Made by a program: the position numbers and the translations under genes. The notes beneath the pieces were generated by a model. The model ran no database searches. It worked only from the letters and a program-made list of their open reading frames with translations, and was not told the DNA's origin. From a virus, in IMG/VR virus record IMGVR_UViG_3300000367_000002, positions 1-47,240 of that record: a stretch of DNA of 47,240 nt; one strand, given 5' to 3'. This document shows, piece by piece, positions 793-45,928 of this stretch (positions within the stretch are counted from its first letter, which is position 1; each line of letters begins with the position of its first letter).

Positions 793-831
793 GAGCAGAA
801 TCATCCATGCTGGCGATCCGGGGTGAGTCCA

Positions 832-1263
832 ATGAAACAGGACGAGCGCTTCAGCTTCAAGAACTGTGATGTCATCCTGTACCCGGACTGGCAGGTGGTG
901 GAAACCTGGTTCCGGGATGGGACGATGGCTCGGGGCACCCGAGAGGGGAACATGGACAATCTGGTATATGCCCAACACCTTGGCTATAGCGATTGTTGGA
1001 GGTGCCTGGTAGAGCACGAACTTCTTCACACATACCTGTCCGAAGCCCTCGGGTATCGCTGGAGCCCCACGCTTTGGGCTGTAGCCCATGATTTCCAACA
1101 GCCCTGTGCCTGGTACGAGGAACAGTTGTACGAGGAGGCAATGGTGTTGGCCTTCCAGTATCGTCTCCACACCGGAAAGAATCTCCCAGCACTTTTTGGG
1201 TTGCCCCAGAACATTCGCTCCCTGATAGTAGATTTTCGCAATCTCACTGACCACCTCTGGTAA
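832..1263 (+). CDS. Small zincin-like protein with HExxH motif
   Basis: A 143-residue protein of unknown function between terminase and portal. I start it at ATG 832 because GGGGTGAG lies just upstream; a GTG at 823 in the same frame would add three residues but has no ribosome site. A central HELLH motif (about residues 62-66) sits in a hydrophobic helix followed by a second acidic helix (YEEQLYEEAM). That is the layout of minimal zinc metallopeptidases, where a downstream Glu gives the third ligand. There is no signal peptide or membrane segment. Cysteines and tryptophans are frequent. It could be a prohead-associated or host-acting protease, or a structural protein that keeps only the fold. 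The motif is seen; the activity is inferred. Confidence 0.6.
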   Translation: MKQDERFSFKNCDVILYPDWQVVETWFRDGTMARGTREGNMDNLVYAQHLGYSDCWRCLVEHELLHTYLSEALGYRWSPTLWAVAHDFQQPCAWYEEQLYEEAMVLAFQYRLHTGKNLPALFGLPQNIRSLIVDFRNLTDHLW

Positions 1264-1272: not shown

Positions 1273-2973
1273 ATGCCCACACCATTCGACAATCTTGGTC
1301 TCAAAAAGGCCAATGAGATTGTGAACCGGGGGATCACCCCATTGGTCAAGCGGAATCGCATGTTCATGGAAGGAGACCACTTCCAAGGGGGCGACGGATG
1401 GATGGGGCCGACACCTCACCCAGGCGAACCAGGTGGCGCTCGCGCAATGATGCTGATTGAGCGCGGGTTTGTGTCGAAGAATGTGATTGCTGAGATCACC
1501 GAACGGCACAGCAGCGGCGTCGTGGGCCGGGAGCCGGCATGGGGGATGGCATGGAAGAAGCCGCTACCTCCGCTTGCCTTGAACGCTGCTGAAGAGGAGA
1601 GGGAAGCTTGGGAAGCTTTGGATAAGGAGCGTTCTGATGTGGAGGAGTGGTTGACCGAGTGGGTAGACAGCCGGGGCGCTCATGAGCTTATCCAGCAGGT
1701 TGTGACCGATCTGTTATGGTCTGGGCGAAGTGCCCTCCGGTTATATATACCGAGCGGGTATTTGAAGGAGAAGGATGGTGAAACTTTCGCAGAAGCGCCA
1801 GACATCCCAAGCGCCCTGGAGATGATTTGGCCAGACCACCCCCAGATTGAGAATGCGCGCATTTTTGAAGACCCTGACACCAAGCGCCGCGTATCCATCT
1901 TTATCTATACCAAGTATGATGACCCCGTGTCCCAGAAAGGTGGTCGCACCTATGCTGAATTGACCTACTTGGACGAGGACAGGGAATTCACCATTGTGCG
2001 AACCATCTCAAACAACACCGACACCAGCTATCCGATCCCGATGGGCGGGAGGTTGTTGATGCATGAGATGGAGCGCCCATTGCTGGTCTCAACCCAGATC
2101 CAGCAAGCCCAGCGAGCGCTCAACCTTGCGCTGTCGAATATTCCGAGGACTGTGGTGACGGCTGGGTATCTGAGGGAAACTCTCCTGAATGCCCAAATGC
2201 CCGGAGATTGGGTAGATGAGCAAGGGAACCCAACCAATCCAGATGAAAACCCAGCCGCCACCTTCCGTCCAGCACCCTACGTCACCGGACCCAACCACTC
2301 CAACTTCGTACAGGGCATCACCTACACTGATGAGGAGGGCAAGACCCACATCACCACCCCCTCCATCCATGAGGGCACCCCGGTCCCAGCAACCTCATCC
2401 ATCGACGCCAAGAACAACCACTACTCGGACATCTTGGATGAGGCTGACCAGCTGCACGTCCTGATGGGCGACAAGGCCACGGCTTCCGGGAAATCCCGGT
2501 TGGACGCGAGGATTGATTTTCTGGCCTCCCTTATGATCACCCAGCCTCGCGTAGAGGCACTGGGACGATGGTTGATCGAGAGTGTGTTAGCGTTGGCGGA
2601 AGCTGTGTCGGGCCAGCCCGGCAAATATAGCGACCGGATGAGGGGTGTGTATCGGTGCCGGTTGAACTCCGGAGCGCTGGCCGCAGAGGAACAGATCCAG
2701 CTCGTGGAGCGGGTGGAGAAGGGGCTGTTGCCGAAGGAGTGGGCAATGGAGATGATGGGAGTGGACGATGTTGACGCTGCGCTGGAGCTGATTGAGGGGG
2801 AGATTATCGCACAATTGGGCCGCTCCGAGAAACAGGCACTCGTCTTCAATCACTGGGTCACCGCTGGGTTGGATCACCAGTCTGCTGGGAAGCTGGCCAG
2901 GCTTACCCCAGAACAGATGGAAATCATCACAGGGAGCCGAGGAAATGCCGAAGACACCGCAATTGAGCAGTAA
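1273..2973 (+). CDS. Portal protein
   Basis: A 566-residue protein with the size, acidic/aromatic pattern and position of a phage portal. It would form the dodecameric ring at one capsid vertex through which DNA enters and leaves, and would contact the terminase. The N-terminus contains a segment describing failure to escape a conserved helix (FVSKNVIAEITERHSSGVVG), typical of portal N-terminal wings. The C-terminal region (about 430-560) is helical, with a repeated EEQIQLVERVEKGLLPKEWA style seen in portal crowns. It follows the zincin-like gene by 9 bases and overlaps the next small gene by 29 bases, so the packaging genes are translated together. Assignment is by pattern and synteny, as portals have no catalytic motif. 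Confidence 0.85.
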   Translation: MPTPFDNLGLKKANEIVNRGITPLVKRNRMFMEGDHFQGGDGWMGPTPHPGEPGGARAMMLIERGFVSKNVIAEITERHSSGVVGREPAWGMAWKKPLPPLALNAAEEEREAWEALDKERSDVEEWLTEWVDSRGAHELIQQVVTDLLWSGRSALRLYIPSGYLKEKDGETFAEAPDIPSALEMIWPDHPQIENARIFEDPDTKRRVSIFIYTKYDDPVSQKGGRTYAELTYLDEDREFTIVRTISNNTDTSYPIPMGGRLLMHEMERPLLVSTQIQQAQRALNLALSNIPRTVVTAGYLRETLLNAQMPGDWVDEQGNPTNPDENPAATFRPAPYVTGPNHSNFVQGITYTDEEGKTHITTPSIHEGTPVPATSSIDAKNNHYSDILDEADQLHVLMGDKATASGKSRLDARIDFLASLMITQPRVEALGRWLIESVLALAEAVSGQPGKYSDRMRGVYRCRLNSGALAAEEQIQLVERVEKGLLPKEWAMEMMGVDDVDAALELIEGEIIAQLGRSEKQALVFNHWVTAGLDHQSAGKLARLTPEQMEIITGSRGNAEDTAIEQ

Positions 2974-3112
2974 GGAGGAGAAGGAGATTGAAGAGGCATC
3001 CACAATCTCTTTCCAGGACATTGAGATCGCTCGGGGAGCCTTTCACCGCAACGCTCCCCGAGAGTTTCGCTATCTCCTGGATGCCCAGCCAATGCCGAGG
3101 AAGAACAAGTGA
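2945..3112 (+). CDS. Small charged protein of unknown function
   Basis: A 55-residue protein starting at ATG 2945 inside the portal gene's end and stopping at 3112. Its TGA overlaps the GTG start of the next gene (GTGA). It is rich in Glu and Lys at the N-terminus (SSKEEKEIEEAS) and ends in a basic tail (PMPRKNK); no domain is recognisable. The double overlap with portal and head-morphogenesis genes argues that it is translated. It could be a small virion or assembly factor, but nothing in the sequence says which. Confidence 0.55.
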   Translation: MPKTPQLSSKEEKEIEEASTISFQDIEIARGAFHRNAPREFRYLLDAQPMPRKNK

Positions 3113-6027
3113 TCGACCCCAGGCGCTACAACTGGGACTCCAAGATCCTCCGCTATCGTGACAGTGGGACGGGGCGGCTGATCTCCCGCAAGGGAATCCG
3201 GGATGCGATGGACACGGCCATTTCAAATTCTGGGATGGAAGTCAATCATCTGTCTCGGGGGCTTCAGGCTGGTAAGATCAGCCTCGCGGAGTGGGAGTTG
3301 GGGATGCGGCGCCAGATCAAAAATGTCCACCTCTTCAATGCTGCGGGAGCAGCGGGTGGGTGGAACCAGCTGGACGCCACAGATTTCGCCCGCATGGGCC
3401 CAGTCGTCCGCGACCAGTACAAATACCTTCGTCGCTTTCACAATGATATAAAGAGTGGGAAAACCCCACTCGATGGGCGTTTTCTCCGGCGAGCGGACAT
3501 GTACGCCCAAGCTGGACGGCGGACCTATGTGGCCGTTGACCAACAGACCCATATCATGCTTGGGTTCAACTTCGAGCAAAACTTCCTACAATCCTCGGAT
3601 GAGTGTGAGGGGTGTCTAGCGGCCACTAAAGCCGGTAGAGTGATGATCCGGACGCTTCCCCCCATAGGTACGCGCGATTGTCTCAGTAACTGCAAGTGCC
3701 GCATCGATTTCTTCAAGGACAAGGACGAGGCATCTGTCCCGATTGGCTCAGGAGGCGGATTTGAGTATCAGCTGATGGACCCCAACAAGACCATCACTGA
3801 CGACAACTTCGATTTCCACAACGAGGCGCTCAAGGAACAGAAACAAGTTTACCAGGACATGATATCGGCACCCAAAGGGCAATATACCCAGGAGGAGATC
3901 AAAGCCCAAGCCATATGGGTGAATACAAAAGAGATAGCCATTGATGACTACATCAAGAAGAGCAGCGAGGGGTTCTTCACTGCCCCTGCCATTGGACCGG
4001 CCAAGGATGGAGTAGAGCTGAGCGACCTAACAGTGCCCAAGTTTCTGGATGGAACGCATGCCAAGGAGATGTATAAAAATAATGGTATCAAGCTATATGG
4101 CCAAAGCATACCAGATCTTCCCATGGACATATTGGAGCACGCTCTAGAGGCCATGAAGCAGGGCAAAGAAGCTGGCCTCGATATGCCGGATGTCTTTTCC
4201 ATTGTGAGGGATGTAAAGGACCCCCAAGGGTGGGTAGCCAAGGCCACGATCAGCACTGCCAAAGATGAAAAAGTCATTGTCCTCAACATTGGCAATGACG
4301 TTTGGAAAGACGGCATGTCGAGCTACCACACGTACCAGAAACAAGCCGTCGCTTCTGGGTTCTCTGCCTCGGATCACCCGTATGCCACCTTCTGGCACGA
4401 AATGGGGCATATAACTAAGAAGGGCATGGATATGACCCCAGCAGGACCGGCCCTGCACAAGTATGCTTTGGAGAGTGTTGGGGAAGTGTCCAAGTACGCG
4501 GCAGTCAGCAAGAGCGAGTACATCTCGGAGGTGATCACGCTCAAATTGGCTGGGAAGAAAATTTCCGATGATGTCCTGATGGTCTATTCTGGACTTGGTG
4601 GACCAGTCATTAACGTCAAGAAGGTGCCGACAGCCGTCGCCGCTGTCCCCAAGCCCCCAACAATGGTGCCGTCGCTCCCGGCTGGCTTCTCGGTTATGAA
4701 GGAGGAGGTGGTCTACGGCAAGAAGGCCATCATTGTGAAGATGCCCAACGGCAAGTTGGCGAAGTTGGACGAGCTTGGGAAGCCGTTCAATGCGAACAAC
4801 GCTAAGATCCTGAAGGCCCAAGGCTTCGTCGCTCCCAAGAAGGGCCTGATTCCTAACCCGTCCTCAGCCGCTGCCTATGTAGCCCCACCGCTACCCACTG
4901 CTGCCGCTAACGTAGGTGTGCCCCTGGGTACGGGTGTGGCCACAGGCGTGCCCACTGTGCCCGTTGGGTTTACGGTGACAGAAACTATCTCAATTTCTGG
5001 GCAACCGCTGTATGTCGTGAGAACACCCACCGGGAAGTTGGCAAGGGTGACTGCAGCTGGAAGGCCGTACAAAGCCTCTGATACAAAGATCCTACAGGGC
5101 GAGGGATTCTTGGCCCAGGCCCAGGTCAAGACAAAGGTTGAAAAGAGGGCATTGGACGCAATGAACAAGTTTGACCAAGCTCTCTTTGATGATTTCAAAG
5201 GCATGATGGAGGGGAATAATTCCAAGGCTGATGATGCTGTATGGGACAATTTCTTCCGAGAGAAGGAAGATTATATGTACCGACGCTTGGAGGAGATGGG
5301 GCTGAGCAAGGATGAGATTGCCGAGCGCTTGGAAATGTATCAACAGGTCATGATTGATTGGATCGACTCCTCTGATAACGATGGGGCACTCCTTATGAAA
5401 TTTGCCTCTAGACAGCTGAATGGGTCTGAGATCATATTTCACGAGGACTATTTGGATCACGACAAAGACCTTCACAAGCGCCTACAGAGCCGTCTTGAAG
5501 ATGTTCTCAGTGATGGGTACTATTTCACGAAGGTTGAAGATCTGGCCGAGATGATGCAGATGGAGATTGACTGGAATACGGCAGCATGGACCAAGGCGTT
5601 CGGCTCCCCGGATGCCACAGTCAAGGTTTTCCGAGGCATGAAGGATGGAGGTGTCTTGGCACAGGGACTGGGGATAAAGAGGCATGGGGAAATTGGATTC
5701 ATGAATGCTCCTGGCAACGCTGCATCCTCTTGGACAACGGCCCAGGGCACAGCCAGCAGCTTTGGGAGAAATGTTTTTGTCCAGGAGATTTCCCCAAAGG
5801 ACATTCTATTCAGCCACGCTTCTGAGATGGGATTGAGATATAGCTATGAAAAGGAACAGATCCTAAACGGCTTGCCCAGGAGAACGGCATATTTCAATAT
5901 ATCAGATTTTGAACATGATTTGAGCGCCGGGGACGTAAACCGTTGGAGAGATGTGGCAAGATTGGCCGGGGGCCAGTTTTACTTGAAATGGGCTGAGGCA
6001 ATGGCCCTGAGAGGATTCAGGATATGA
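3109..6027 (+). CDS. Polyvalent head-morphogenesis protein with zinc-protease motif and ADP-ribosyltransferase-like C-terminus
   Basis: A 972-residue multidomain protein, far longer than ordinary MuF/SPP1 gp7-type minor head proteins (roughly 250-500 residues). Residues 1-205 look like the MuF-type head domain and end in the typical Cys cluster (C166, C169, C191, C195, C197). Residues about 290-500 contain HEMGH (H430, E431, H434), followed by a YISEV segment whose Glu (470 or 474) could be the third zinc ligand. Two copies of a ~49-residue module (about 525-573 and 619-667, with PNGKLAKLDELGKPF and PTGKLARVTAAGRPY) follow, separated by Ala/Pro/Val-rich linkers. The last ~140 residues show the order of an R-S-E ADP-ribosyltransferase: FRGM (R842), ASSWTT (S873/S874), EKE (E914, E916). 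It starts with GTG at 3109. A likely role is a minor capsid protein injected with the DNA. The domain functions are inferred from motifs. Confidence 0.8.
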   Translation: MIDPRRYNWDSKILRYRDSGTGRLISRKGIRDAMDTAISNSGMEVNHLSRGLQAGKISLAEWELGMRRQIKNVHLFNAAGAAGGWNQLDATDFARMGPVVRDQYKYLRRFHNDIKSGKTPLDGRFLRRADMYAQAGRRTYVAVDQQTHIMLGFNFEQNFLQSSDECEGCLAATKAGRVMIRTLPPIGTRDCLSNCKCRIDFFKDKDEASVPIGSGGGFEYQLMDPNKTITDDNFDFHNEALKEQKQVYQDMISAPKGQYTQEEIKAQAIWVNTKEIAIDDYIKKSSEGFFTAPAIGPAKDGVELSDLTVPKFLDGTHAKEMYKNNGIKLYGQSIPDLPMDILEHALEAMKQGKEAGLDMPDVFSIVRDVKDPQGWVAKATISTAKDEKVIVLNIGNDVWKDGMSSYHTYQKQAVASGFSASDHPYATFWHEMGHITKKGMDMTPAGPALHKYALESVGEVSKYAAVSKSEYISEVITLKLAGKKISDDVLMVYSGLGGPVINVKKVPTAVAAVPKPPTMVPSLPAGFSVMKEEVVYGKKAIIVKMPNGKLAKLDELGKPFNANNAKILKAQGFVAPKKGLIPNPSSAAAYVAPPLPTAAANVGVPLGTGVATGVPTVPVGFTVTETISISGQPLYVVRTPTGKLARVTAAGRPYKASDTKILQGEGFLAQAQVKTKVEKRALDAMNKFDQALFDDFKGMMEGNNSKADDAVWDNFFREKEDYMYRRLEEMGLSKDEIAERLEMYQQVMIDWIDSSDNDGALLMKFASRQLNGSEIIFHEDYLDHDKDLHKRLQSRLEDVLSDGYYFTKVEDLAEMMQMEIDWNTAAWTKAFGSPDATVKVFRGMKDGGVLAQGLGIKRHGEIGFMNAPGNAASSWTTAQGTASSFGRNVFVQEISPKDILFSHASEMGLRYSYEKEQILNGLPRRTAYFNISDFEHDLSAGDVNRWRDVARLAGGQFYLKWAEAMALRGFRI

Positions 6028-6173
6028 ACAGGAAAGATCGAAAGCTATACAAGCGGCACCTTCGCGACCTACAGAAGGAAGATCCAGAAATCAAGTTTAT
6101 TTTCGACATCACCAAGGAGGATGCGAATTGGATCAAGCGCGCACAACCCGAGGAGGAGGACGAGGATGCCTAG
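6024..6173 (+). CDS. Small charged protein of unknown function
   Basis: A 49-residue protein starting at ATG 6024, which overlaps the TGA of the head-morphogenesis gene, and ending at TAG 6171-6173 inside the next gene. It has a basic N-terminal half (MNRKDRKLYKRHLRDLQ) and a strongly acidic C-terminus (PEEEDEDA). No domain is recognised. Tight overlaps on both sides are the main evidence that it is real. The charge split would suit a small adaptor or assembly peptide, which is speculation. Confidence 0.55.
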   Translation: MNRKDRKLYKRHLRDLQKEDPEIKFIFDITKEDANWIKRAQPEEEDEDA

Positions 6174-6369
6174 CTTCTTTCCCCAATGCGCCAATTGTAA
6201 GCATTTCCATAATCTGAATAAGGAGGCAGACACCTGTGATGCGTTCCCCTCCGGGATTCCCCGGTTGATTCTGTCCAATCGCGCAGACCACCGTAAACAA
6301 TTCAAAGGAGACAATGATATAAAATACTCGCCGGTACACCTGGAAATAAAGCATCCCTTGTATAGCTGA
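6166..6369 (+). CDS. Small Cys-rich protein (CxxCKHF ... CDAFPSGIP)
   Basis: A 67-residue protein starting at ATG 6166. It has the pattern CANCKHF, then about 16 residues, then CDAFPSGIPRLI. This C-x2-C ... C-x-A-F-P-x-G-I-P arrangement recurs in short phage and prophage proteins and looks like a small metal-binding knuckle; its role is not known to me. It overlaps the preceding gene by 8 bases. Its stop codon lies inside the left arm of the 14-bp hairpin at 6368-6403, and it is the last gene before the scaffold/capsid block. Confidence 0.65.
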   Translation: MPSFFPQCANCKHFHNLNKEADTCDAFPSGIPRLILSNRADHRKQFKGDNDIKYSPVHLEIKHPLYS

Positions 6370-6386
6370 ACAACAACCATTATAGT
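6358..6386 (+). promoter_or_regulatory. Candidate sigma70-type promoter before scaffold and capsid genes
   Basis: TTGTAT (6358-6363), a 17-base spacer and TATAGT (6381-6386) match the -35/-10 layout of sigma70 promoters with four of six consensus bases at -35 and five of six at -10. It lies at the end of the Cys-rich gene, about 50 bases before the scaffold start at 6435, where a strong late promoter for capsid proteins would be useful. The -10 box overlaps a perfect inverted repeat. Not tested; inferred from sequence alone. Confidence 0.45.
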
Positions 6387-6403
6387 AAGAATGGTTGTTG
6401 TTC
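6368..6403 (+). terminator. Perfect 14-bp hairpin (terminator, operator or mRNA-stability element)
   Basis: Arms 6368-6381 (GAACAACAACCATT) and 6390-6403 (AATGGTTGTTGTTC) pair perfectly around an 8-base loop. There is no run of T after the stem, so it is not a standard intrinsic terminator. It separates the packaging genes from the scaffold/capsid genes and overlaps the candidate promoter at 6358-6386. It may be a dyad operator or a structure that protects the capsid mRNA. Confidence 0.5.
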
Positions 6404-6434
6404 GACTAACCCGAAAACCTCCCAGGGGGAGAGC

Positions 6435-7205
6435 ATGAAGAGACACGGAATTTTGTTCCGGACAGAGCCAGAGGGGGAAGGCGAGACCAAGACACCTTCC
6501 AACCCGCCCAGCAGACCCAAGGGCAGTCCCAATGTCCAGGGGTTTATTGCTGGAAAGGCTGGAGGTGACCCAATCATGGCCGTCTCTATTCTACTTGGAG
6601 AACGATTCCAGCAGCGTCAGCGCATCCGATCCTTGGAGGCTGATTTGGCCACTGCTGGGAAAATTGCCCCCAAGGAGGGGCAGCGCGTTCTTTCCAAGGA
6701 GGAGGCCGAGGAGTTGGAGGCTTACAGAGCACTCGGCAAGCCAGGGGAAGTCAAAACCAAAGTTGATGAGCTTCAAGGCAAGCTCAGCAAAATCGAACAG
6801 GATCAGCAGGTTGGAGCAGCCATGGAAGCAGTTGGCTACAAGAACCCAACGATTCTGAACGATCTGGTTGTGGCCAGGGGCCTCAAGTTGGAGTTGAGGG
6901 AGGAGACCAAGGATGGTAAGCAGGTGAAAATTCCCTACGTCAAGGCCGGAGACAAAGACTCTGTGCCGTTGACCCAGTACGTGGAATCCGAGGCCAAGGA
7001 TTATCTCGTGCCGCTGAAGGGGACGACAACCAGCGAGAACTCCGATGCCCGTGGGGGGATCAGGTTTCCTGCATCGACTGGTGGAAGCTCTGGTGGAGAG
7101 GGTGGTTCCGGCGACAAGGTTGCTGAGAGGATCGCCGCGCGCCAGAAGGCAAGAGAGGAAGGCTTGAAGGTGAGCCCTCTGCACAAGATTTCAACCATTC
7201 AGTAA
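6435..7205 (+). CDS. Head scaffolding protein
   Basis: A 256-residue charged protein with a long helical/coiled-coil centre (about residues 55-140, with EEAEELEAYRALGKPGEVKT and QGKLSKIEQDQQ) and a Gly/Ser-rich segment near 215-230 before a basic C-terminus (AERIAARQKAREEGLKVSP). This is the usual make-up of a phage scaffold: it co-assembles with the capsid protein through its basic C-terminal helix and leaves or is degraded on maturation. A ribosome site CCAGGGGG precedes ATG 6435. It is placed directly before decoration-like and major capsid genes. No protease domain is visible in it. Function is inferred from composition and synteny. Confidence 0.75.
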   Translation: MKRHGILFRTEPEGEGETKTPSNPPSRPKGSPNVQGFIAGKAGGDPIMAVSILLGERFQQRQRIRSLEADLATAGKIAPKEGQRVLSKEEAEELEAYRALGKPGEVKTKVDELQGKLSKIEQDQQVGAAMEAVGYKNPTILNDLVVARGLKLELREETKDGKQVKIPYVKAGDKDSVPLTQYVESEAKDYLVPLKGTTTSENSDARGGIRFPASTGGSSGGEGGSGDKVAERIAARQKAREEGLKVSPLHKISTIQ

Positions 7206-7214
7206 GGAAGGCCC

Positions 7215-7619
7215 ATGAATCGGAACAATTATAACCTGGGCCGCCCATCGTTCATTCTCGATCAGCACTCGATGATGACGATTGACGGACGCCAGGTTGA
7301 CTGGGCGAACGTTCCGGCTGGCTACATCGGTGCCAATGGCCAAAAGCAGCTGAAGGCTGGTACGGTCATCTCCGAGATGCCAGACGGTCGCGTCGTGCCC
7401 ACCGGGGTGGCAGGAGCAGGGGCTGCAATTGGGCTCCTGGCCACGGATGCAAATCAGGGCGCTCTTTATGAGGCTCTGAGCGGATATGGCGTTTACGTTG
7501 GAGGGGTGATCTATGAGACGCTCCTCCCACAGCCTCTTGATGCCGGCCTGAGGGATGCGCTCAATGCATCCGGAACGGGTTGGCGTTTTGAGGCGTATGC
7601 TGACACTCGTGGAGCCTAA
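7215..7619 (+). CDS. Head decoration-like protein
   Basis: A 134-residue protein between scaffold and major capsid protein, where lambda-like phages encode the decoration protein that trimerises on and stabilises the expanded capsid. The middle part (VPAGYIGANGQKQLKAGTVI, then a Gly/Ala-rich stretch) is β-rich, as in the gpD fold with its 'constant, rising to lattice' sheet. It has no signal peptide or catalytic motif. AAGGAAGG precedes the ATG. I am fairly sure it is a virion protein; the decoration role rests on gene order and size. Confidence 0.6.
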   Translation: MNRNNYNLGRPSFILDQHSMMTIDGRQVDWANVPAGYIGANGQKQLKAGTVISEMPDGRVVPTGVAGAGAAIGLLATDANQGALYEALSGYGVYVGGVIYETLLPQPLDAGLRDALNASGTGWRFEAYADTRGA

Positions 7620-7634
7620 AGGGGGAGTAGCGAT

Positions 7635-8777
7635 ATGATTCTCAACTTTGTCGCTGCGCTTATGACCCTTGGGGCTAACGCAGCTTTCCGTATCATCAAT
7701 GGGGCACGCCCCCCATCCGATTATCTCCTGGAGCAGTTTCTTCCAGAGGAGAATCGGCCCACTTACCATGCCCAGGGCGGCAACATGGTCATCCGAGCCA
7801 CAATGGCTGGGCTGGTCGGCATGGATTCTTCCTATCCTCCGGGTGGAGCGGCTGAGGCGAGCGACTGGAACGCTCAGACGGCCAAGGTTGCCAATGAGGT
7901 TCCTCTCTCGGAGCATCAGCTTCGGACGCTTCAGGATCTTCTGATGCGGGCTGGGATTCTCGGTGATCAGCTCGCCACCAACGAGAGGCTTGCAGACGAG
8001 GCGCTCAACTTCTTTGAGCTCGTCATCATGCAGCCCCACTTCGACACTGCAGAATGGCTTCGTGGCCAGGCTCTGCAGAATGGTGTGATCGACTGGACCT
8101 TCAACAAGAAGCGTCTGTTCATCGACTACCAGCTTCCCGCAGCCAACTTCCTTCCCGAGCGCACTGTTGCGGGCGGTGAAGCGTATCATCTTCCTGGCTC
8201 GGTGTTCTGGAACGACATTCGCCAGCTTCGTCGGACGCTGCGCGGACAGGTTCGCGCCATTATCGCCCATCCCGACACCATCGATGCTATCCGCTACAAC
8301 CCGGCCAATCAGCTGGCCACGGTTGGTGAGTCGGGCAGCTCAGTGGTGTTCCGTCGCTTTGCCCGCAACTCAGCGGGTGAGGATTTCCCTGGGCAGTTCA
8401 GCGCAGACGCTGCGGATGTGGTGACGTTGGTCGGATATGACCGTGAGGGTGAGGTCATCAATCCGGCCAACCCGGACACCACGCTGATTCTTCCCTTCAT
8501 CAATCGTGGCCATCTCGTGGCCATCGGGAACAACAACGTCCAGGGGTATGTTCCGGGGCGTGGTTCTCAGGGTGAAGATCCTGATGATGCCAACCGTCTC
8601 GGCTACACCCACATCGGCCCCACGGTCGAAGGTGGTGGTCAGATGGGTCGTTGGGGCGACATGTACGTTCCCCAGGAGCGCCCATACCAGCTTCGGGGTC
8701 GTGCCGTCACCAATATCGCTCCGGTTATTGAGGCTCCCCAGAAAATCGCGCGAGCGACCACGGAGCTTCCGGCGTAA
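7635..8777 (+). CDS. Major capsid protein (HK97 fold, lambda gpE-like)
   Basis: A 380-residue protein with the size and order of a lambda gpE-type major capsid protein, following scaffold and decoration-like genes. It begins with a helical N-terminal region (LEQFLPEENRPTYHAQGGNM), then an EVPLSEHQLRTLQDLLMRAG segment and the typical GQVRAIIAHPDTIDAIRYN portion of the A-domain. The C-terminal part (PVIEAPQKIARATTELPA) closes with no cleavable tail. A ribosome site GGGGGAG lies 7-13 bases before ATG 7635. It is followed by a hairpin at 8785-8812. The fold assignment is by recognition of the pattern, not by alignment. Confidence 0.88.
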   Translation: MILNFVAALMTLGANAAFRIINGARPPSDYLLEQFLPEENRPTYHAQGGNMVIRATMAGLVGMDSSYPPGGAAEASDWNAQTAKVANEVPLSEHQLRTLQDLLMRAGILGDQLATNERLADEALNFFELVIMQPHFDTAEWLRGQALQNGVIDWTFNKKRLFIDYQLPAANFLPERTVAGGEAYHLPGSVFWNDIRQLRRTLRGQVRAIIAHPDTIDAIRYNPANQLATVGESGSSVVFRRFARNSAGEDFPGQFSADAADVVTLVGYDREGEVINPANPDTTLILPFINRGHLVAIGNNNVQGYVPGRGSQGEDPDDANRLGYTHIGPTVEGGGQMGRWGDMYVPQERPYQLRGRAVTNIAPVIEAPQKIARATTELPA

Positions 8778-8784
8778 GCAGCGA

Positions 8785-8812
8785 GGGGACACAGCCGTTT
8801 GGGTGTCTCCCC
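8785..8812 (+). terminator. Hairpin after the capsid gene
   Basis: GGGGACAC (8785-8792) pairs with GTGTCTCCCC (8803-8812) with a two-base bulge and a ten-base loop. It lies 7 bases after the capsid stop and 30 bases before the next start. There is no T-run, so it more likely protects or attenuates the abundant capsid transcript than fully ends it. Confidence 0.4.
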
Positions 8813-8841
8813 ACTGATCACCCCTTGATGTGAGGAAGGAT

Positions 8842-9171
8842 ATGGCAGAGGAAATGGTAACTGTGCCCGAGCTCAAAAACAGCGTTGGCCTTCGGGGTGG
8901 CCGGCTGTATGGGCCTGGCCAGGACGTGGAGGTCCCCAAGGCGCTGGCTGAGGCGCTTGGGCTGGCCTATCAGATCAATGTGGAGGACCAGGAGGATCGT
9001 TCTGATAACCTGGAGCCAGCCACCGCAGGTGATTTCGATGGAAGAACGGCTGATCAGCTTGAGGCCGAGTTCAGCGCTGATGAGCTTCGCGAGGAAGCCG
9101 AAAGGCGCGGCCTTGAGGTGAAGAAGGGTGCGAAGAAGGCTGATTACGCGAAGGCACTGGCTTCTTCGTGA
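8842..9171 (+). CDS. Head-tail region protein with C-terminal HeH/SAP-like helix pair
   Basis: A 109-residue protein starting at ATG 8842, chosen over GTG 8830 because GAGGAAGG lies at the right distance. Residues 1-50 are a small β-rich segment (LRGGRLYGPGQDVEVPKALAEAL). The last ~35 residues (ADELREEAERRGLEV, then KKGAKKADYAKALA) resemble the helix-extended-helix (HeH/LEM/SAP-like) motif often found at the C-terminus of small phage proteins after the capsid gene. It may bind DNA or other head-completion proteins. Its stop overlaps the next GTG start. Confidence 0.6.
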   Translation: MAEEMVTVPELKNSVGLRGGRLYGPGQDVEVPKALAEALGLAYQINVEDQEDRSDNLEPATAGDFDGRTADQLEAEFSADELREEAERRGLEVKKGAKKADYAKALASS

Positions 9172-9575
9172 TCACGCCAGCTGATCTCCTTTCACCAGTG
9201 GGGCCGTTGGAGCCTGGCTTTTTGCCCGATACTCCAACGGACCCACTGGTGGATAGGCTTCAAATCTATATCACGGAGGGGGAGCTCAAGGTGCTTTCCT
9301 ATCCTATTGTAGTGGAGGAGCCGGATTCAGCTGTGAAGGCTTGGGCGCTGTATCGGGCGTTTGATGCTGCGTATTTGTTGAAATCCAACCGTCCTGCATC
9401 CTCCTCGATGCAAGACCTGGGTAGTCAGTCCTTCACCGAGGGTCAGATCAAAGCCTTCCAGGACAAGGCGCTGGACTATCTCCAAGCCTTCCACCTTATT
9501 ATCCCAGAAACCGCTTCCGTACAATCTGATCGCTTTACGGGGACCATAGCGGTGCCTAAAACAAGGCACTGGTAA
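9168..9575 (+). CDS. Head-tail connector (adaptor-like) protein
   Basis: A 135-residue mostly helical protein with GTG start at 9168 overlapping the previous stop (GTGA). Segments DRLQIYITEGELKVLSYP and SAVKAWALYRAFDAAYLLKS resemble the helical bundle of gp6/gp15-type adaptors that extend the portal ring. It is followed by stopper-, gp10-like and terminator-like genes in the canonical connector order. The call is mainly from synteny, size and helix content. Confidence 0.6.
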   Translation: MITPADLLSPVGPLEPGFLPDTPTDPLVDRLQIYITEGELKVLSYPIVVEEPDSAVKAWALYRAFDAAYLLKSNRPASSSMQDLGSQSFTEGQIKAFQDKALDYLQAFHLIIPETASVQSDRFTGTIAVPKTRHW

Positions 9576-9578
9576 GAG

Positions 9579-9989
9579 ATGTCTGGAGAATCCTTCGTTA
9601 CCCCAGAGATGCTGCAAACCTTCACAGACATGTCTGTGGGGGCAATGCCCGATACTGCAGCACTCCATATTCCAGGGGAATGGGTTGACGAGGGTGGAGG
9701 TTCAGGTTATCGGGGAGAAGGCACAACGGTGACCTTCTCTTGCAGGATCGTCGCCATGTCCACCAAAGAGGATCTCAGGGAGTTTTACTCTGCGGGCAAG
9801 ATGGATGTGTCGAATATCGTCTCAATGTACTGTCCTCTCCCGAATGACCAAATCACCCCAGACTCGATTATCACAGTAGTCTCCGGGAGGCACAATGTCT
9901 CGACAACCTATGAGGTTGCCGGCCTCCCGCCTCTCAGCAGTTACGCTGTTCATCGACAGGTTCTGCTAAGGAGGATTGTAAGTGGCTAG
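9579..9989 (+). CDS. Head-tail stopper-like protein
   Basis: A 136-residue β-rich protein. The central part (GEGTTVTFSCRIVAMSTKED, then ITVVSGRHNVSTTYEV) fits the small β-barrel of head-completion stopper proteins, which close the portal channel after packaging. It lies between the adaptor-like and the HK97 gp10-like genes, which is the expected position. It overlaps the next gene by 8 bases. No catalytic motif is present. Confidence 0.55.
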   Translation: MSGESFVTPEMLQTFTDMSVGAMPDTAALHIPGEWVDEGGGSGYRGEGTTVTFSCRIVAMSTKEDLREFYSAGKMDVSNIVSMYCPLPNDQITPDSIITVVSGRHNVSTTYEVAGLPPLSSYAVHRQVLLRRIVSG

Positions 9990-10407
9990 AAAACATGGAA
10001 GGATGAGGCAGAAGCACAATGTGAGATTGTCCATAGAAGGGCAATCCGCAATTGTGGCCAACTTCTACCGAATGAACGAGCGAATCGTGGAGGAGATGCG
10101 CGTGGCCACCCGTAGGTCGGGACAACAGACACGCGACCTGGCTGTACAACTTGCGCCCAAGGAGACTGGGTACATGGCCAGGAATATCAAAGTTTCCTAC
10201 ACCAAGGATGAAGTTGGGTTCGATGTGTATTGTGATCCCAATGACTATCTCCCCCACAATTTGCCCTTTTACCCATTTTACCAAGAGTTGGGCACATCAA
10301 GGATGGAAGCCCAACCGTTTCTTCGCCCTGCATTTGAAGCCATGTCTCCCCACTACAGGGCTGATATTAGCGTGGCGATCAAGAAAGCCCTGAGGAAGGG
10401 GATATGA
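9982..10407 (+). CDS. HK97 gp10-like head-tail / tail-completion protein
   Basis: A 141-residue protein with the HK97 gp10 family signature: LAPKETGYMARNIKV in the centre and FYQELGTSRMEAQPFLRPAF near the C-terminus. Members of this family join heads to tails in long-tailed phages. The GTG start at 9982 is supported by AAGGAGG seven bases upstream, inside the previous gene. The last bases overlap the next start (ATGA). Confidence 0.85.
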   Translation: MARKHGRMRQKHNVRLSIEGQSAIVANFYRMNERIVEEMRVATRRSGQQTRDLAVQLAPKETGYMARNIKVSYTKDEVGFDVYCDPNDYLPHNLPFYPFYQELGTSRMEAQPFLRPAFEAMSPHYRADISVAIKKALRKGI

Positions 10408-10817
10408 GCGCCTGGTATGTGAAGAAAGTCATTATGGATTTTCTCAATGCAGACAGCGTTCTCCCGCCAATTTATGATCGAGTTGATGCTAATGCCCCGA
10501 AACCATATGGCACTTTCGGCCCTCCGGTTGAGAGCGCGAGGGGGCGCTTGGGGAAGCCTCCAGCATCAACTCATAGCATTGAGATAAATTGGTGGGGCCT
10601 GGATACCGAGGTGGTTTCTGGGATTGAGAGGAGACGTGGTGATTCTCAGGTCGGGAACATGGCCGCTCGGGCAAGGGACATCCTTCACGGGAATTTGATT
10701 GAAATTCCTGGGGCCACTGAGATGATACTTCTTCGCTGGGAGCAGGACACCTATATCCCAGAGATTGAAAGGAATCTACGCAGGGTCAGACAACTTTACC
10801 GAGTGAACACAAGATGA
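10404..10817 (+). CDS. Tail terminator-like protein
   Basis: A 137-residue protein of the size of siphophage tail terminators (lambda gpU, SPP1 gp17 and DUF3168 types), which cap the tail tube and receive the head. The β/α pattern (PKPYGTFGPPVES, then STHSIEINWWGLDTEVVSG and a long helix) and the ILLRWEQDTYIPE strand near the end fit this fold. It directly follows the gp10-like gene and precedes the tail tube gene. Inferred from order and pattern. Confidence 0.65.
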   Translation: MSAWYVKKVIMDFLNADSVLPPIYDRVDANAPKPYGTFGPPVESARGRLGKPPASTHSIEINWWGLDTEVVSGIERRRGDSQVGNMAARARDILHGNLIEIPGATEMILLRWEQDTYIPEIERNLRRVRQLYRVNTR

Positions 10818-11068
10818 AATTGGACCCTGCCTCAATTGCAAGCAAGCTGTTGGCCGTTCGTTCCCAGGCATTGGCCACAATGTCTCTGGTTGATGATTTG
10901 CTCAGGGAGCTTCAACCGGCTGTGGAGGAGGGGACTAGCAGGAAAACATTTGGAGGGAAAAGTGGAAAAAAAGATAGACATTCCTCCTTCGCTCCGTCGG
11001 AGGATGGAAGCCCGCCAAGCAGCGTCCGGCCAGATGTCGATGTCGGACCTTCAAAAGGTGGTCAGTGA
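10814..11068 (+). CDS. Small helical protein, C-terminus overlapping the next gene
   Basis: An 84-residue protein starting at ATG 10814, overlapping the previous stop by 4 bases. Residues 1-40 are a clear helix (ASKLLAVRSQALATMSLVDD). From about residue 48 on the sequence is low-complexity, rich in Ser, Pro, Gly and Lys, and is read in a frame overlapping the next gene by 107 bases. Short helical proteins of this kind often lie before the tail tube gene. The odd C-terminus may mean that the true product continues in the other frame (see the findings). Confidence 0.5.
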   Translation: MKLDPASIASKLLAVRSQALATMSLVDDLLRELQPAVEEGTSRKTFGGKSGKKDRHSSFAPSEDGSPPSSVRPDVDVGPSKGGQ

Positions 11069-11165
11069 GGCAGAGGTAAAGCCCAAGGGGCGCACCAAGA
11101 AGGATCTTCAAGAGGCTGTTTACGATGCAGCTGTGCCGGACGTCACCAATACCAAAAAGGAGTGA
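10962..11165 (+). CDS. Small basic protein before the tail tube gene
   Basis: A 67-residue protein. I place the start at GTG 10962, with TGGAGGG four bases upstream. It is charged and helical (PPSLRRRMEARQAASGQMSM, then SDLQKVVSEAEVKPKGRTKK). It ends three bases before the tail tube start. The strong amphipathic character and natural composition over its whole length make this the genuine frame here, and the overlapping frame of the previous gene less so. The function is unknown. Confidence 0.55.
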   Translation: MEKKIDIPPSLRRRMEARQAASGQMSMSDLQKVVSEAEVKPKGRTKKDLQEAVYDAAVPDVTNTKKE

Positions 11166-11168
11166 GAA

Positions 11169-11597
11169 ATGCCACTCGACGTTGAGAATGTCTTGGTACA
11201 GGTGGGCGAGGACCAGGCAGGTCCATTCGCCACCATCGAAGACATTGAGAGCTATGATGCGACCCATGGGACCGAGGCTCCCGCTCGGCGTCGTGTCTTT
11301 GGCAGGCCCAACCCATACTTCCGCGCAGGACCGGATACGGACACGTATGACCTGAGTGGGCTGCTGAACCTGGAAGATACGGCTGGGCAGAATCCTCTCC
11401 GCAACAGTCGCGATGCGCGCGTGACTGTTTGGCTCCGGGTTCTCCCCATGGGGATGGATACTGGAGCGCTGGGATACCTCCAGGAGTGCAATGTGACCGA
11501 GTACACCGACAATGCGGATGCGGATGCCGAGTATGTCGAGTGTTCCTTTTCCCTGGAAGGGGTTGGCCCGAAGATCGACATCACAATGCCCGCATAA
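11169..11597 (+). CDS. Major tail (tube) protein
   Basis: A 142-residue protein in the position of the siphophage major tail protein. It has Asp/Glu-rich β segments (ENVLVQVGEDQAGPFATIED), a disordered region around 45-70 and a final β part (LQECNVTEYTDNADADAEYV). It lacks the large extra domains of some tail tube proteins. AAGGAG is followed by ATG 11169. It is the last gene before a promoter/hairpin pair and the tail chaperones, consistent with high expression. Confidence 0.75.
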   Translation: MPLDVENVLVQVGEDQAGPFATIEDIESYDATHGTEAPARRRVFGRPNPYFRAGPDTDTYDLSGLLNLEDTAGQNPLRNSRDARVTVWLRVLPMGMDTGALGYLQECNVTEYTDNADADAEYVECSFSLEGVGPKIDITMPA

Positions 11598-11607
11598 GGG
11601 GCAGACC

Positions 11608-11636
11608 TTGTTTATTGTGCATTCGACTACTATAAT
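11608..11636 (+). promoter_or_regulatory. Candidate sigma70-type promoter before the tail chaperone genes
   Basis: TTGTTT (11608-11613), 17 bases, then a perfect TATAAT (11631-11636). Transcription would begin near 11643, inside the hairpin at 11638-11669. It is in the gap after the tail tube gene and reads toward the tail chaperones and tape measure. This is the best sigma70 match I found in the window. Confidence 0.55.
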
Positions 11637-11637
11637 T

Positions 11638-11669
11638 GGGCAGGTATAGACAAGGCTCTATACCTGCCC
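11638..11669 (+). terminator. Perfect 12-bp hairpin after the tail tube gene
   Basis: GGGCAGGTATAG (11638-11649) and CTATACCTGCCC (11658-11669) form a perfect stem with an 8-base loop. No T-run follows. It begins two bases after the TATAAT box. It may be the 5' stem of the downstream mRNA or the 3' stem protecting the tail tube mRNA, rather than a classical terminator. Confidence 0.5.
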
Positions 11670-11695
11670 ATCACCAAGCTCAAGGAGCTACAGCA

Positions 11696-12163
11696 ATGCC
11701 CGAGGACTACAGCCAGTTTCTCTCCCTGGACGAAATCGTTGATATTGATGATTATGTCTACGATATTGTCGAAATCCCCGAATGGCCCAAGAACGGCAAG
11801 CCGGGCAAGCTCATGGTGAGGAACGCAACCTCGCTGGAGAGGGACAAGTGGGAGCGAACGGTTCAGGGCCTGGACAGCGACAACAAGCGCAAGGGCAATA
11901 ACAAGAGCAACGCGGCTGTTGTAAAACAGACCAAGGAGGCCAGTCGAGCGCTCCTGATCTCAATGTGCACAGTCAATCCCATCACCAAAGAGCGTATCTT
12001 CCGGGATACGACAGCGGTGCTTCAACTGGCTCGCAAGAACAGTGGGCCGATTGGGCGGCTGTTCAATCGTATCATTGAGCTTTCGGATGTCTCCGAGGAG
12101 GATCTCAAGGAGATGGAGCTTGAGTTTGAGGAAAACCCTACCGAGCTTTCTGCTATCGACTAG
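11696..12163 (+). CDS. Tail assembly chaperone (G-type)
   Basis: A 155-residue protein starting at ATG 11696 with CAAGGAG 8-14 bases upstream. Tail assembly chaperones bind the tape measure protein and guide tube polymerisation. The sequence is typical: an acidic start (FLSLDEIVDIDDYVYDIVEI), a helix near TSLERDKWERTVQG, and a C-terminal RIIELSDVSEEDLKEMELEF. Like lambda G it lies immediately before the tape measure gene, with a second frame (-1) continuing past its stop to 12321. The combination of position and an overlapping T-like frame makes this assignment strong. Confidence 0.85.
   Translation: MPEDYSQFLSLDEIVDIDDYVYDIVEIPEWPKNGKPGKLMVRNATSLERDKWERTVQGLDSDNKRKGNNKSNAAVVKQTKEASRALLISMCTVNPITKERIFRDTTAVLQLARKNSGPIGRLFNRIIELSDVSEEDLKEMELEFEENPTELSAID
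12130..12136 (+). other. Candidate -1 ribosomal slippery heptamer GGAAAAC
   Basis: In the chaperone frame the codons read G-GAA-AAC. A -1 slip places AAC onto AAA and GAA onto GGA. The -1 frame has stop codons at 12121-12123 and 12127-12129, so any productive shift must occur between 12130 and the chaperone stop at 12161. This heptamer is the only X-XXY-YYZ-like sequence I see there. The A-site match is good and the P-site match imperfect, so another slip site (for example around GAGCTTTCT) is possible. Confidence 0.5.
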
Positions 12164-27120: not shown

Positions 27121-27606
27121 ATGAAAAGACCACCTAACAGGCCACCACCAAGGGATCGTTGGGGGAGATTTATGGCTGAGCCTGGATTCGATGATTTCCG
27201 GCTTCATCCCATTCCGTTCCCAACAAAAGACTGGCGAGCCTTTGTGGTGGCTGTTACGGATGGTGATACCATTGAGTTGAAGATGGACCGAGGAGACGGC
27301 GATACCTCCAAGTGGCGAGTTCGCCTGGTCTGTCGTGGTGGCGGTTGGTTCGATGCCCCGGAGAGCAGGGGAGCGGAAAGGGCTGAGGGGGTGCTTTGGC
27401 AGGAGGAGCTTGCCCTTCTTATCCTTCAACAGCCGGTTACGGTTCACACAGAGAAGCACAATGCTCTAGGGGTGCCCCGGAAATCGTTTGAGCGTTACCT
27501 GGCATGGGTGACGATGGTGGACGGAAGGGACCTGGTTGATGTGCTGGTAGAAACAATGTGGCAGAAGCATTCCTTGAGACCAAAGAGGTACGATGTCCTC
27601 GGATAA
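27121..27606 (+). CDS. SNase-like (thermonuclease-family) nuclease
   Basis: A 161-residue protein with the staphylococcal-nuclease (OB-fold) signature. Visible are VVAVTDGDTIELKM (D47, D49, T50 region for Ca2+), KWRVRLVCRGGGWFDAPESR (Arg 66 or 68, and Glu 81 as general base) and ERYLAWVTMVDGRDLVDVLV (Arg 125). Known members cut DNA and RNA. A basic, Pro-rich N-terminus (KRPPNRPPPRDRWGRF) replaces a signal peptide, so it probably works inside the cell, for instance on host DNA, or is released at lysis. It overlaps the subtilisin-like gene by 14 bases. Confidence 0.85.
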   Translation: MKRPPNRPPPRDRWGRFMAEPGFDDFRLHPIPFPTKDWRAFVVAVTDGDTIELKMDRGDGDTSKWRVRLVCRGGGWFDAPESRGAERAEGVLWQEELALLILQQPVTVHTEKHNALGVPRKSFERYLAWVTMVDGRDLVDVLVETMWQKHSLRPKRYDVLG

Positions 27607-28717
27607 AAATGAACGCACAGAGAGGCGTAACATCCAGCCACGCTCGATTCCGGGCAAAGTTGAGGGCCGCTACCTTGTGCGTCTAAAGGATGGTGTCCGT
27701 GCCCAAGGATTGGTCCGAGCGCTGGGCGTCGTGACTGATGAAGTTTACGACTCTGTGCTTGATGGGTTTGCTGCCACAATGACAGAAAAGCAGGTTGAGG
27801 CGTTGCGGAGAAACCCGAATGTCACGAGCATTGAGCCTGATGGTTGGGTTCGAGCTGAGCGACTGTTTCCATGGCCAACGCTGAACACTCAAGAGTTGGA
27901 CGAGAACGGGGAGCCATGGGGGTTGGACCGGATTGACCAAATCTCCACCCGTTATACTGGAACCTACCGCTACCTGCGCACTGGAAAGGGTGTGACTGCG
28001 TATGTCTTGGATACCGGCATTGATCATGCCCATCACGAATTTCAAGGTCGTGCCCGCCCCGGTTATGACCAGTACGGTACCGGAGGCAGGGATGTTGACG
28101 GGCACGGAACGCACTGTGCCGGAACCATCGGTGGTAAAACCTTTGGCGCGGCAAAAGAGGTTGATCTTGTCTCTGTGAAGGTGTTGGACGACAATGGCTG
28201 GGGCACGTGGAGCGGTGTGATTGCTGGAATGGACTGGGTCGCGAAACAGGCAGCACGTCCAGCTATCGCCAATCTGTCACTCGGGGGTGGATTCAGTGCA
28301 ATCGTCAACTCTGCCGTGGATCGTTTGACGAAAGCTGGAGTAAGCGTGATCGTAGCGGCAGGGAACGAATCCCAGAATGCCTGCAACACCTCCCCAGCCA
28401 GCGCTCCCTCTGCAGTGACCGTGGGGGCCAGCACCCGATTCGATCATGTGGCTGGCTTCTCCAACTTCGGGCCATGCGTCACTCTTTATGCCCCCGGCAC
28501 GCTGATACTCTCAGCCCTGCCCGGAGGAGGGAAGGACCTTTGGAGCGGGACGAGCATGGCCGCTCCTCTGGTGGCCGGGATCGTGGCTCTGTTGCTGGAA
28601 AAGGAGCCACATTTCACCCCGAGGAGGGTCTGCCATTGGCTCGTTGATCATGCCCACCGTGGCCGACTCAAGGGCGTTCCGAGGGAAACCTTGCTAGTCC
28701 ATAAAGCCAGGCTCTAA
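27593..28717 (+). CDS. Subtilisin-like serine protease with propeptide (S8, proteinase K-like)
   Basis: A 374-residue protein with a full catalytic set: YVLDTGID (D140), DGHGTHCAG (H171), AAGNES (oxyanion N258) and GTSMAAP (S321). Residues about 25-85 resemble the inhibitor I9 prodomain (GRYLVRLKDGVRAQGL ... NVTSIEPDG), which acts as a folding chaperone and is cut off. The overall pattern is closest to proteinase K-type subtilases. There is no signal peptide, so it would be made in the cytoplasm and could act there or after lysis. Subtilases are rare in phages. The start ATG 27593 is preceded by AAAGAGG. It lies between the nuclease and the amidase. Confidence 0.92.
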   Translation: MSSDKNERTERRNIQPRSIPGKVEGRYLVRLKDGVRAQGLVRALGVVTDEVYDSVLDGFAATMTEKQVEALRRNPNVTSIEPDGWVRAERLFPWPTLNTQELDENGEPWGLDRIDQISTRYTGTYRYLRTGKGVTAYVLDTGIDHAHHEFQGRARPGYDQYGTGGRDVDGHGTHCAGTIGGKTFGAAKEVDLVSVKVLDDNGWGTWSGVIAGMDWVAKQAARPAIANLSLGGGFSAIVNSAVDRLTKAGVSVIVAAGNESQNACNTSPASAPSAVTVGASTRFDHVAGFSNFGPCVTLYAPGTLILSALPGGGKDLWSGTSMAAPLVAGIVALLLEKEPHFTPRRVCHWLVDHAHRGRLKGVPRETLLVHKARL

Positions 28718-31383: not shown

Positions 31384-31761
31384 ATGGCGAGAGTTTTTGT
31401 ATCTCAGCAAACGCTCCGGAAATCTGAGGCCACTGGCGAAATGGTCCAATTTCCGGTTCTGCGTCCAGCCGAGCGATTCGGTGAGATTGTGTTTCTGCTA
31501 GATTGGCATGAAGCGATGGACCTGTCTGAACAAGACACAATTTGGAAGATCCGGAGAAGGCTTGCGGATTTTGGTGACGACGATTACCTTCTTCCCCTCG
31601 GCAGTCCCGTTTCGATGGTCATGAGCGCACTCTTGGCAGCGGAGGTGAATGATGGACGCGTAAAGATTCTCCAATGGGACCGGGACAACCGGACCTATGA
31701 GGTGAAAACGATTGATTCCAATGCACAGCCGGTAAACAGTAACAGAATTGGAGAATTGTGA
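31384..31761 (+). CDS. Protein of unknown function in the replication operon
   Basis: A 125-residue protein three bases after the helicase stop. β/α pattern with ERFGEIVFLLDWHEAMDLSE and GDDDYLLPLGSPVSMVMSAL. Its content resembles small phage proteins paired with helicases, but I recognise no domain. The C-terminal end overlaps the repeated GAATTGGAGAATTG ribosome element of the next gene. Confidence 0.6.
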   Translation: MARVFVSQQTLRKSEATGEMVQFPVLRPAERFGEIVFLLDWHEAMDLSEQDTIWKIRRRLADFGDDDYLLPLGSPVSMVMSALLAAEVNDGRVKILQWDRDNRTYEVKTIDSNAQPVNSNRIGEL

Positions 31762-31763
31762 TG
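31745..31763 (+). promoter_or_regulatory. Repeated translation-start element GAATTGGAGAATTGTGATG
   Basis: Located at the end of the preceding gene and ending with ATG 31761. It shares the 14-base core GAATTGGAGAATTG with the copy at 35659, although the codons it lies in differ. Confidence 0.7.
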
Positions 31764-32309: not shown

Positions 32310-32428
32310 TTCTGTTCTATCTCCTCTCTGCCTTGATTCTGGCGATGGTGCTGCTATGGGCATCTTGGGTTGTGATCATGGTGTTCCATCTCCGGAAGGG
32401 AAGGGGGAGGAAATGGCCAAATTCCTGA
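32306..32428 (+). CDS. 40-residue membrane microprotein
   Basis: ATG 32306 overlaps the previous stop (ATGA) and the TGA is at 32426-32428. Residues 1-29 are one hydrophobic span (FYLLSALILAMVLLWASWVV) followed by a basic tail (HLRKGRGRKWPNS), so the C-terminus is probably cytoplasmic. It overlaps the next membrane gene by 16 bases. Confidence 0.6.
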   Translation: MILFYLLSALILAMVLLWASWVVIMVFHLRKGRGRKWPNS

Positions 32429-32619: not shown

Positions 32620-32666
32620 GGATAATCAAAAACCAGTCGCTCATAACAATCCCTTTGGAGGCTGTA

Positions 32667-45881: not shown

Positions 45882-45928
45882 GTAAGGACCCAGGGGCACA
45901 CCCAATCACAGCGGAGACACGAAGCTAG

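What the first reader, a model, noticed from the sequence alone, without database searches (positions are those of the whole stretch)
3109..6027. 972-residue head protein combining MuF-like domain, HExxH zincin and ADP-ribosyltransferase-like C-terminus
The order MuF-type Cys domain, HEMGH (430-434), two ~49-residue modules and an R-S-E set (R842, S873/S874, E914-x-E916) fits the idea of polyvalent proteins that carry effector domains into the cell with the phage DNA. Two different catalytic activities on one minor head protein would be a notable injected weapon against host proteins. Motif spacing supports the transferase call but is not proof.
Basis: partly seen in the sequence, partly recalled or inferred. 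Interest (0 to 1): 0.78.

Follow-up and report, generated by a model that had tools for sequence, protein, structure and literature searches.

The report
Phage head protein with two enzymes
An uncultured phage's portal-neighbour head protein carries a zinc-protease-like domain and an ADP-ribosyltransferase-like domain, and so looks like a known kind of virion-carried weapon (MuF toxins, polyvalent proteins) in a combination not found in the relatives or papers read here.

Summary
Window 3109-6027 is one uninterrupted 972-aa gene, identical in a second IMG/VR assembly. The N-terminal 207 residues belong to PHROG 24776, an unannotated family. It is fused to the portal in two relatives and distantly matches Pfam Phage_Mu_F, so it is a MuF-like, portal-proximal head protein. 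Residues 426-490 match the zincin attached to MuF-type head proteins in other phages (WHExGH...E[YF]xxE). The C-terminus is an R-S-ExE ADP-ribosyltransferase (ART). A gapped motif scan of IMG/VR returned 41 distinct in-frame proteins; 36 carry the expected RG upstream, which was not in the pattern, and at least five of them are Phage_Mu_F proteins by Pfam. An AlphaFold model (moderate confidence) retrieves mainly ART folds. Caveat: most of the profile score rests on the motif residues themselves. The gene therefore belongs to a known class: MuF toxins and polyvalent proteins, with Bxa and T4 Alt as functional precedents. The less usual points are the zincin plus R-S-E ART on one head polypeptide, an unannotated carrier family, and a contig where I found no integrase. 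Injection, enzyme activity and self-processing are inferred, not shown.

The parts
3109..6027 (+). 972-aa fusion gene: MuF-like head domain, zincin, two repeat modules, ADP-ribosyltransferase
   Evidence: ORF and motif positions; identical second assembly
3109..3735 (+). N-terminal domain (aa 1-209), PHROG 24776, portal-proximal MuF-like domain with C166/C169...C191/C195/C197
   Evidence: phrog_24776 E=1.5e-38; 47 IMG/VR loci; fused to portal in L034 and L045; hhalign against a Phage_Mu_F profile 87%, E=3.8e-6
3976..4608 (+). zincin-like metallopeptidase domain (aa about 290-500): W429, H430, E431, H434, E470/E474
   Evidence: motif scan returned MuF-type head proteins; alignment A3; profile match 426-490, E=1e-5
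4660..4833 (+). repeat module 1 (aa 518-575)
   Evidence: 23/58 identical to module 2
4942..5115 (+). repeat module 2 (aa 612-669), set in Pro/Ala-rich linkers
5311..6024 (+). R-S-E ADP-ribosyltransferase domain (aa about 735-972): R842-G843, S874-W875-T876, A882, F885, E914-K-E916; upstream W751..S754-S755
   Evidence: AF2 and Foldseek; Pfam DRAT E=0.0026, below cut-off
1273..2973 (+). 566-aa upstream gene, probably the portal protein (inferred from position, size and synteny; no family hit)
   Evidence: 34% identical homologue also upstream of the PHROG 24776 gene in L007; no Pfam or PHROG hit
6024..6173 (+). 49-aa ORF whose ATG overlaps the stop of the fusion gene; candidate immunity or accessory gene (unproven)
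   Evidence: no Pfam hit
6166..6369 (+). 67-aa small Cys protein (CANCKHF...CDAFPSGIP); candidate immunity or accessory gene (unproven)

Best explanation
The gene encodes a minor head protein that sits at the portal through its N-terminal MuF-like domain and carries two enzyme domains. I infer that one or a few copies are built into the head and leave with the DNA at infection. I also infer that the zincin cuts within the Pro/Ala-rich linker and repeat region (about residues 500-735), either in the maturing head or in the host, and so frees the C-terminal transferase. The transferase, an R-S-E enzyme with an ExE motif (which predicts arginine as acceptor), would then ADP-ribosylate host proteins early in infection, in the manner of T4 Alt or Bxa. 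Shown here: the ORF, the three domain identities by sequence (ART also by fold search), and the portal association of the carrier family. Inferred: packaging, injection, self-cleavage, activity and targets. The confidence is for a head-carried, injected ART with an accompanying zincin; the self-cleavage step alone I put at about 0.35.
For: Carrier domain: phrog_24776, E=1.5e-38. It stands close to the terminase and portal genes in Cylindrospermopsis phage Cr-LKS4, is fused to a portal (phrog_3753) in L034 and L045, and matches a Phage_Mu_F profile (hhalign 87%, E=3.8e-6, against under 1% for two control profiles). Zincin: a motif scan independent of the N-domain returned 10 other contigs. Seven carry one family of zincin; the three of these scanned in Pfam are head proteins, Phage_Mu_F (L056, L061) and Phage_min_cap2 (L063). 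Residues outside the pattern are also shared (S461, A464, G482). ART: the W-T..A..F..E[KR]E scan gave 41 distinct in-frame proteins, of which 36 carry [YFWLV]R[GA] upstream against about 20% background. L154, L173, L176, L157 and L119 are Phage_Mu_F proteins above the Pfam cut-off. A profile of 7 such ART domains without the query hits residues 745-931 at E=3e-9 with R, SW and ExE in register; none of 2,000 shuffles appears among the hits listed. In the Foldseek PDB search about 45 of the top 50 matches are ART superfamily members. Precedent: MuF-ART toxin Bxa (PMC11699363); zincin processing in polyvalent proteins (PMC5512222).
Against: When the 8 residues used to select the ART set are masked in the query, the profile score falls from 35.6 to 6.2 bits; masking the zincin pattern residues removes that match entirely. 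Similarity outside the motifs is therefore weak. No single Foldseek PDB hit is significant (best E=0.09; model pLDDT 64.5, pTM 0.55). No virion, cleavage or activity data exist. None of the relatives examined shows the same fusion.
Confidence: 0.6

Rival explanations
1. Both enzymes are effectors: the zincin cuts host proteins and the transferase modifies host proteins after injection, with no self-processing.
For: About 20% of MuF toxins carry a metallopeptidase domain as the presumed toxin (PMC5576092). The zincin is the only added domain recognised in the MuF-zincin relatives.
Against: In this protein the zincin lies between the carrier and the ART and is followed by long Pro/Ala-rich linkers, a layout that suits release of the C-terminus. 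There is no direct evidence either way.
Confidence: 0.35
2. It is a MuF polymorphic toxin of a temperate phage, used in competition between bacteria, with the small downstream ORF(s) as immunity genes.
For: [quoted passage not shown] Here a 49-aa ORF overlaps the stop codon and a 67-aa Cys protein follows. Bxa has such immunity genes (PMC11699363).
Against: I found no integrase or repressor among the Pfam-scanned ORFs; the contig has its own primase, helicases, Thy1 and exonuclease. No ADP-ribosyl hydrolase or macro domain was found. The contig is linear and may be incomplete, and not every small ORF was scanned.
Confidence: 0.25
3. The C-terminal domains are degenerate or structural: a large decorated head protein without enzyme activity.
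For: The domains are very divergent from named families (no Pfam hit above cut-off). Inactive versions exist in this class, such as the PBECR domain of Mu gp30 (PMC5512222).
Against: All expected catalytic residues are present and in register (R842, S874, E914, E916; H430, E431, H434, E470/E474).
Confidence: 0.1

Closest known systems
MuF polymorphic toxins of temperate phages, including Bxa (MuF + ART, Bacteroides stercoris prophage) and Apk2
   Same: Head-morphogenesis position, N-terminal MuF-like domain, C-terminal ART, small ORF directly downstream; Bxa is of similar size (869 aa, ART at 621-869).
   Different: The carrier is PHROG 24776, related to Phage_Mu_F only at profile level; an additional zincin and two repeat modules are present; no integrase or ADP-ribosyl hydrolase was seen.
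Polyvalent proteins (Iyer et al. 2017, PMC5512222)
   Same: Several unrelated enzymatic domains, zincin MPTase plus ART, on one polypeptide encoded in the virion module.
   Different: The typical polyvalent ART is of H-Y-D type; the R-S-E (Alt/VIP2) type was said in that paper not to occur in genuine polyvalent proteins. Here an R-S-E ART shares the polypeptide with the zincin.
T4 Alt (packaged, injected R-S-E ART acting on RNA polymerase)
   Same: R-S-E ART predicted to travel with the DNA.
   Different: To my knowledge Alt is not fused to a MuF-like domain or a zincin; homology was not tested beyond motif class.
MuF-zincin and MuF-ART head proteins from IMG/VR (L056, L061, L063; L154, L173, L176, L157, L119)
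   Same: Each shares one of the two enzyme domains on a MuF-type head protein.
   Different: None of them was found to carry both enzymes, and their carrier is classical MuF, not PHROG 24776.

Membership tests
MuF superfamily (PF04233/PF06152 and MuF3/4 of PMC5576092) | Significant match to a MuF Pfam profile | tested here: not met
   No PF04233 hit for the window protein; 2 of 19 family members hit it, best E=0.048
MuF superfamily (PF04233/PF06152 and MuF3/4 of PMC5576092) | HMM-HMM similarity to MuF1 | tested here: met
   hhalign 87%, E=3.8e-6 over 74 columns including CxxC...CxC; controls below 1%; 53% with a smaller profile
MuF superfamily (PF04233/PF06152 and MuF3/4 of PMC5576092) | Gene next to or fused with the portal gene | tested here: met
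   Fused to portal in L034 and L045; near portal in Cr-LKS4. In the window the neighbour is a portal only by position and size
Zincin-like metallopeptidase | HExxH plus downstream Glu ligand | tested here: met
   HEMGH 430-434, EYISE 470-474; alignment A3
Zincin-like metallopeptidase | Match to a curated metallopeptidase profile or fold | tested here: inconclusive
   Reprolysin_4 E=0.11-0.13, below cut-off; relative L061 hits Pfam ATLF at E=0.026, below cut-off; fold not modelled with an alignment
ADP-ribosyltransferase, R-S-E class | R (strand 1), S (SxS/SSW), ExE in order with usual spacing | tested here: met
   R842, S874, E914/E916, invariant in A7/A8
ADP-ribosyltransferase, R-S-E class | ART fold | tested here: inconclusive
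   AF2 pLDDT 64.5; most top PDB matches are ARTs but the best E is 0.09; BFVD hits at E=5e-4 and 1e-3 are uncharacterised proteins
ADP-ribosyltransferase, R-S-E class | Curated family match above cut-off | tested here: not met
   DRAT E=0.0026, 17.4 bits against a cut-off of 25; ART-signature relatives L173 and L104 show the same weak hit
MuF polymorphic toxin | Small immunity ORF downstream | tested here: inconclusive
   Two small ORFs present; function unknown
MuF polymorphic toxin | Encoded by a temperate phage | tested here: inconclusive
   No integrase found in scanned ORFs; contig linear and possibly incomplete
Polyvalent / injected protein | Present in the virion and delivered into the host | not testable with these tools
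   Needs virion proteomics

The most novel reading that the evidence does not exclude
A MuF-like head protein that works as a self-opening package: the zincin cleaves its own polypeptide to release an R-S-E ADP-ribosyltransferase into the host. This would be a combination of carrier family, protease and transferase class not documented before, in a phage that may be virulent rather than temperate.
Probability: 0.25. Interest if true: 0.6.

Novelty: new variant of a known kind. Interest (0 to 1): 0.42.

Why it matters
It identifies a previously unannotated phage family (PHROG 24776) as a portal-associated MuF-like head domain that can carry effectors. It also adds a case where a protease and a transferase share one head polypeptide, so the proposed role of zincins in releasing injected effectors becomes testable on a single protein. 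The class itself is known, so the gain is moderate.

Tried and rejected
AlphaFold on the full-length single sequence gave an unusable model (pLDDT 36). tblastn of the ART and zincin parts against phages, and of the ART part against plasmids, found nothing. Single-sequence scans of IMG/VR found only the identical twin. A first ART pattern scan had a spacing error (17 N instead of 16, out of frame with the query) and is not used (corrected). A joint zincin + ART alignment misaligned the zincins and was dropped. Masking the pattern residues removed most of the profile score, so I do not treat E=3e-9 as fully independent evidence. Weak hits to syntaxin, ribosomal L37, PdaB, HetR_C and a herpesvirus tegument family were judged chance. 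One MuF row (L176) came from the wrong strand; it is noise in an otherwise sound profile.

Full report
Observation. The window is a 47,240-base IMG/VR virus record, linear and possibly a fragment. It begins inside a terminase large subunit gene and ends inside an exonuclease gene. A second contig is identical from position 2224 to 12024, while its portal-candidate gene differs upstream. The two repeat modules are 58 residues long with 23 identities, not 49.

N-terminal domain. Residues 6-207 match phrog_24776, 'unknown function', at E=1.5e-38. A profile scan found 47 IMG/VR loci and two bacterial genome loci. In most it is a stand-alone protein of about 200-240 aa. It lies two genes after the portal in Cylindrospermopsis phage Cr-LKS4 and is fused to a recognisable portal in L034 and L045. 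Direct Pfam MuF hits are below threshold, but profile-profile comparison with Phage_Mu_F gives 87%, E=3.8e-6, with two control profiles under 1%. I conclude that it is a MuF-like, portal-proximal head domain; strict membership of PF04233 is not met. The window gene just upstream (1273-2973) is a portal by position and size only, and its place before the PHROG 24776 gene is conserved in L007.

Zincin. A DNA pattern for WHE[LMIF]GH followed at 30-40 residues by E[YF]x[SA]E returned 11 IMG/VR contigs, one of them the twin. Seven of the other ten carry one related zincin (L056, L057, L060-L064). The three of these scanned in Pfam are head proteins: Phage_Mu_F for L056 and L061, Phage_min_cap2 for L063. 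The other three contigs carry a different family of about 280-325 aa. In the alignment, positions outside the pattern are also invariant. The profile of these zincins hits the window protein at 426-490 with E=1e-5. When the pattern residues are masked the match disappears, so the evidence is motif, spacing, context and a few extra residues, not extended similarity.

ADP-ribosyltransferase. Among the 80 listed loci, 41 distinct in-frame cores were found, and 36 have an aromatic or aliphatic residue followed by R-[GA] within 60 residues upstream, against about 20% of background windows. The signature therefore marks ARTs. L154, L173, L176, L157 and L119 are Phage_Mu_F proteins above the Pfam cut-off. 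Several share an upstream W..[ST]S segment with the query (W751-I-D-S-S). A profile of seven such domains, without the query, hits residues 745-931 at E=3e-9 with R842, S874-W875 and E914/E916 in register. Masking the eight selected residues lowers the score from 35.6 to 6.2 bits. Pfam DRAT is hit weakly by the query and by L173 and L104 alike. AlphaFold with 21 sequences gave pLDDT 64.5. In the PDB search about 45 of the top 50 matches are ART-superfamily members, none individually significant; the viral library gave uncharacterised proteins first and several named ARTs below.

Combination. None of the 52 ART-signature ORFs examined also contains HExxH, and no PHROG 24776 relative examined carries either enzyme. 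The fusion is rare in this sample; this is not proof that it is unique.

Function. MuF toxins with ART or metallopeptidase domains are described (PMC5576092). Bxa, a MuF-ART fusion, is antibacterial and has two immunity proteins (PMC11699363). Polyvalent proteins combine zincin and ART, and the zincin is proposed to process the polypeptide (PMC5512222). Alt/VIP2 ARTs fused to MuF are described in PMC9503650. By these precedents I favour a packaged and injected transferase, possibly released by its own zincin. The ExE motif suggests arginine as acceptor (general knowledge of ARTs). Whether it serves host takeover in a virulent phage or competition in a temperate one is open: I found no integrase or repressor in the scanned ORFs, but two small ORFs follow the gene.

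Host. PHROG 24776 occurs in cyanophages and in the Trichocoleus genome and a few others searched as its phylum, and the window encodes proteins like those of cyanophage Pam3, but it also occurs in genomes around another, unnamed bacterium. The host is undecided.

Verdict. A new variant of a known kind, of moderate interest.

Noticed in passing
window 823-1263 (+): A 146-aa ORF between terminase and the portal candidate contains EHELLHTYLSEALG, a second HExxH-type motif, with no Pfam or PHROG hit.
   Followed up: no
window 6024-6369 (+): Two small ORFs directly after the fusion gene: 49 aa overlapping its stop, then a Cys protein with CANCKHF...CDAFPSGIP; the C.AFP.GIP motif was found in no other of the 223 sequences held except copies of this locus and its twin.
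   Followed up: partly
window about 2223 compared with L001: Sharp boundary: identical DNA from 2224 to 12024, but all 125 differences in the aligned stretch lie before 2224, suggesting recent recombination inside the portal-candidate gene.
   Followed up: partly
window 31384-33515 (+): Three neighbouring genes match Pam3 cyanophage gp32, gp33 and gp34 families.
   Followed up: no
window 27593-28717 (+): Subtilase with an I9 inhibitor domain, close to an amidase and an M15 peptidase gene.
   Followed up: no
window 43805-46741 (+): Thy1, a PNKP-like phosphatase, a short-chain dehydrogenase and a glyoxalase-like gene in a row.
   Followed up: no
L109 2-5485 (+): A 1,828-aa polypeptide combines portal, an ART-signature region and a primase-like region.
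   Followed up: no
L157 831-3413 (+) and L104 1870-4773 (+): Single proteins with two ART domains each; L157 also has Phage_Mu_F.
   Followed up: partly
L034 1111-3465 and L045 4231-6666 (+): PHROG 24776 fused to the portal protein.
   Followed up: yes
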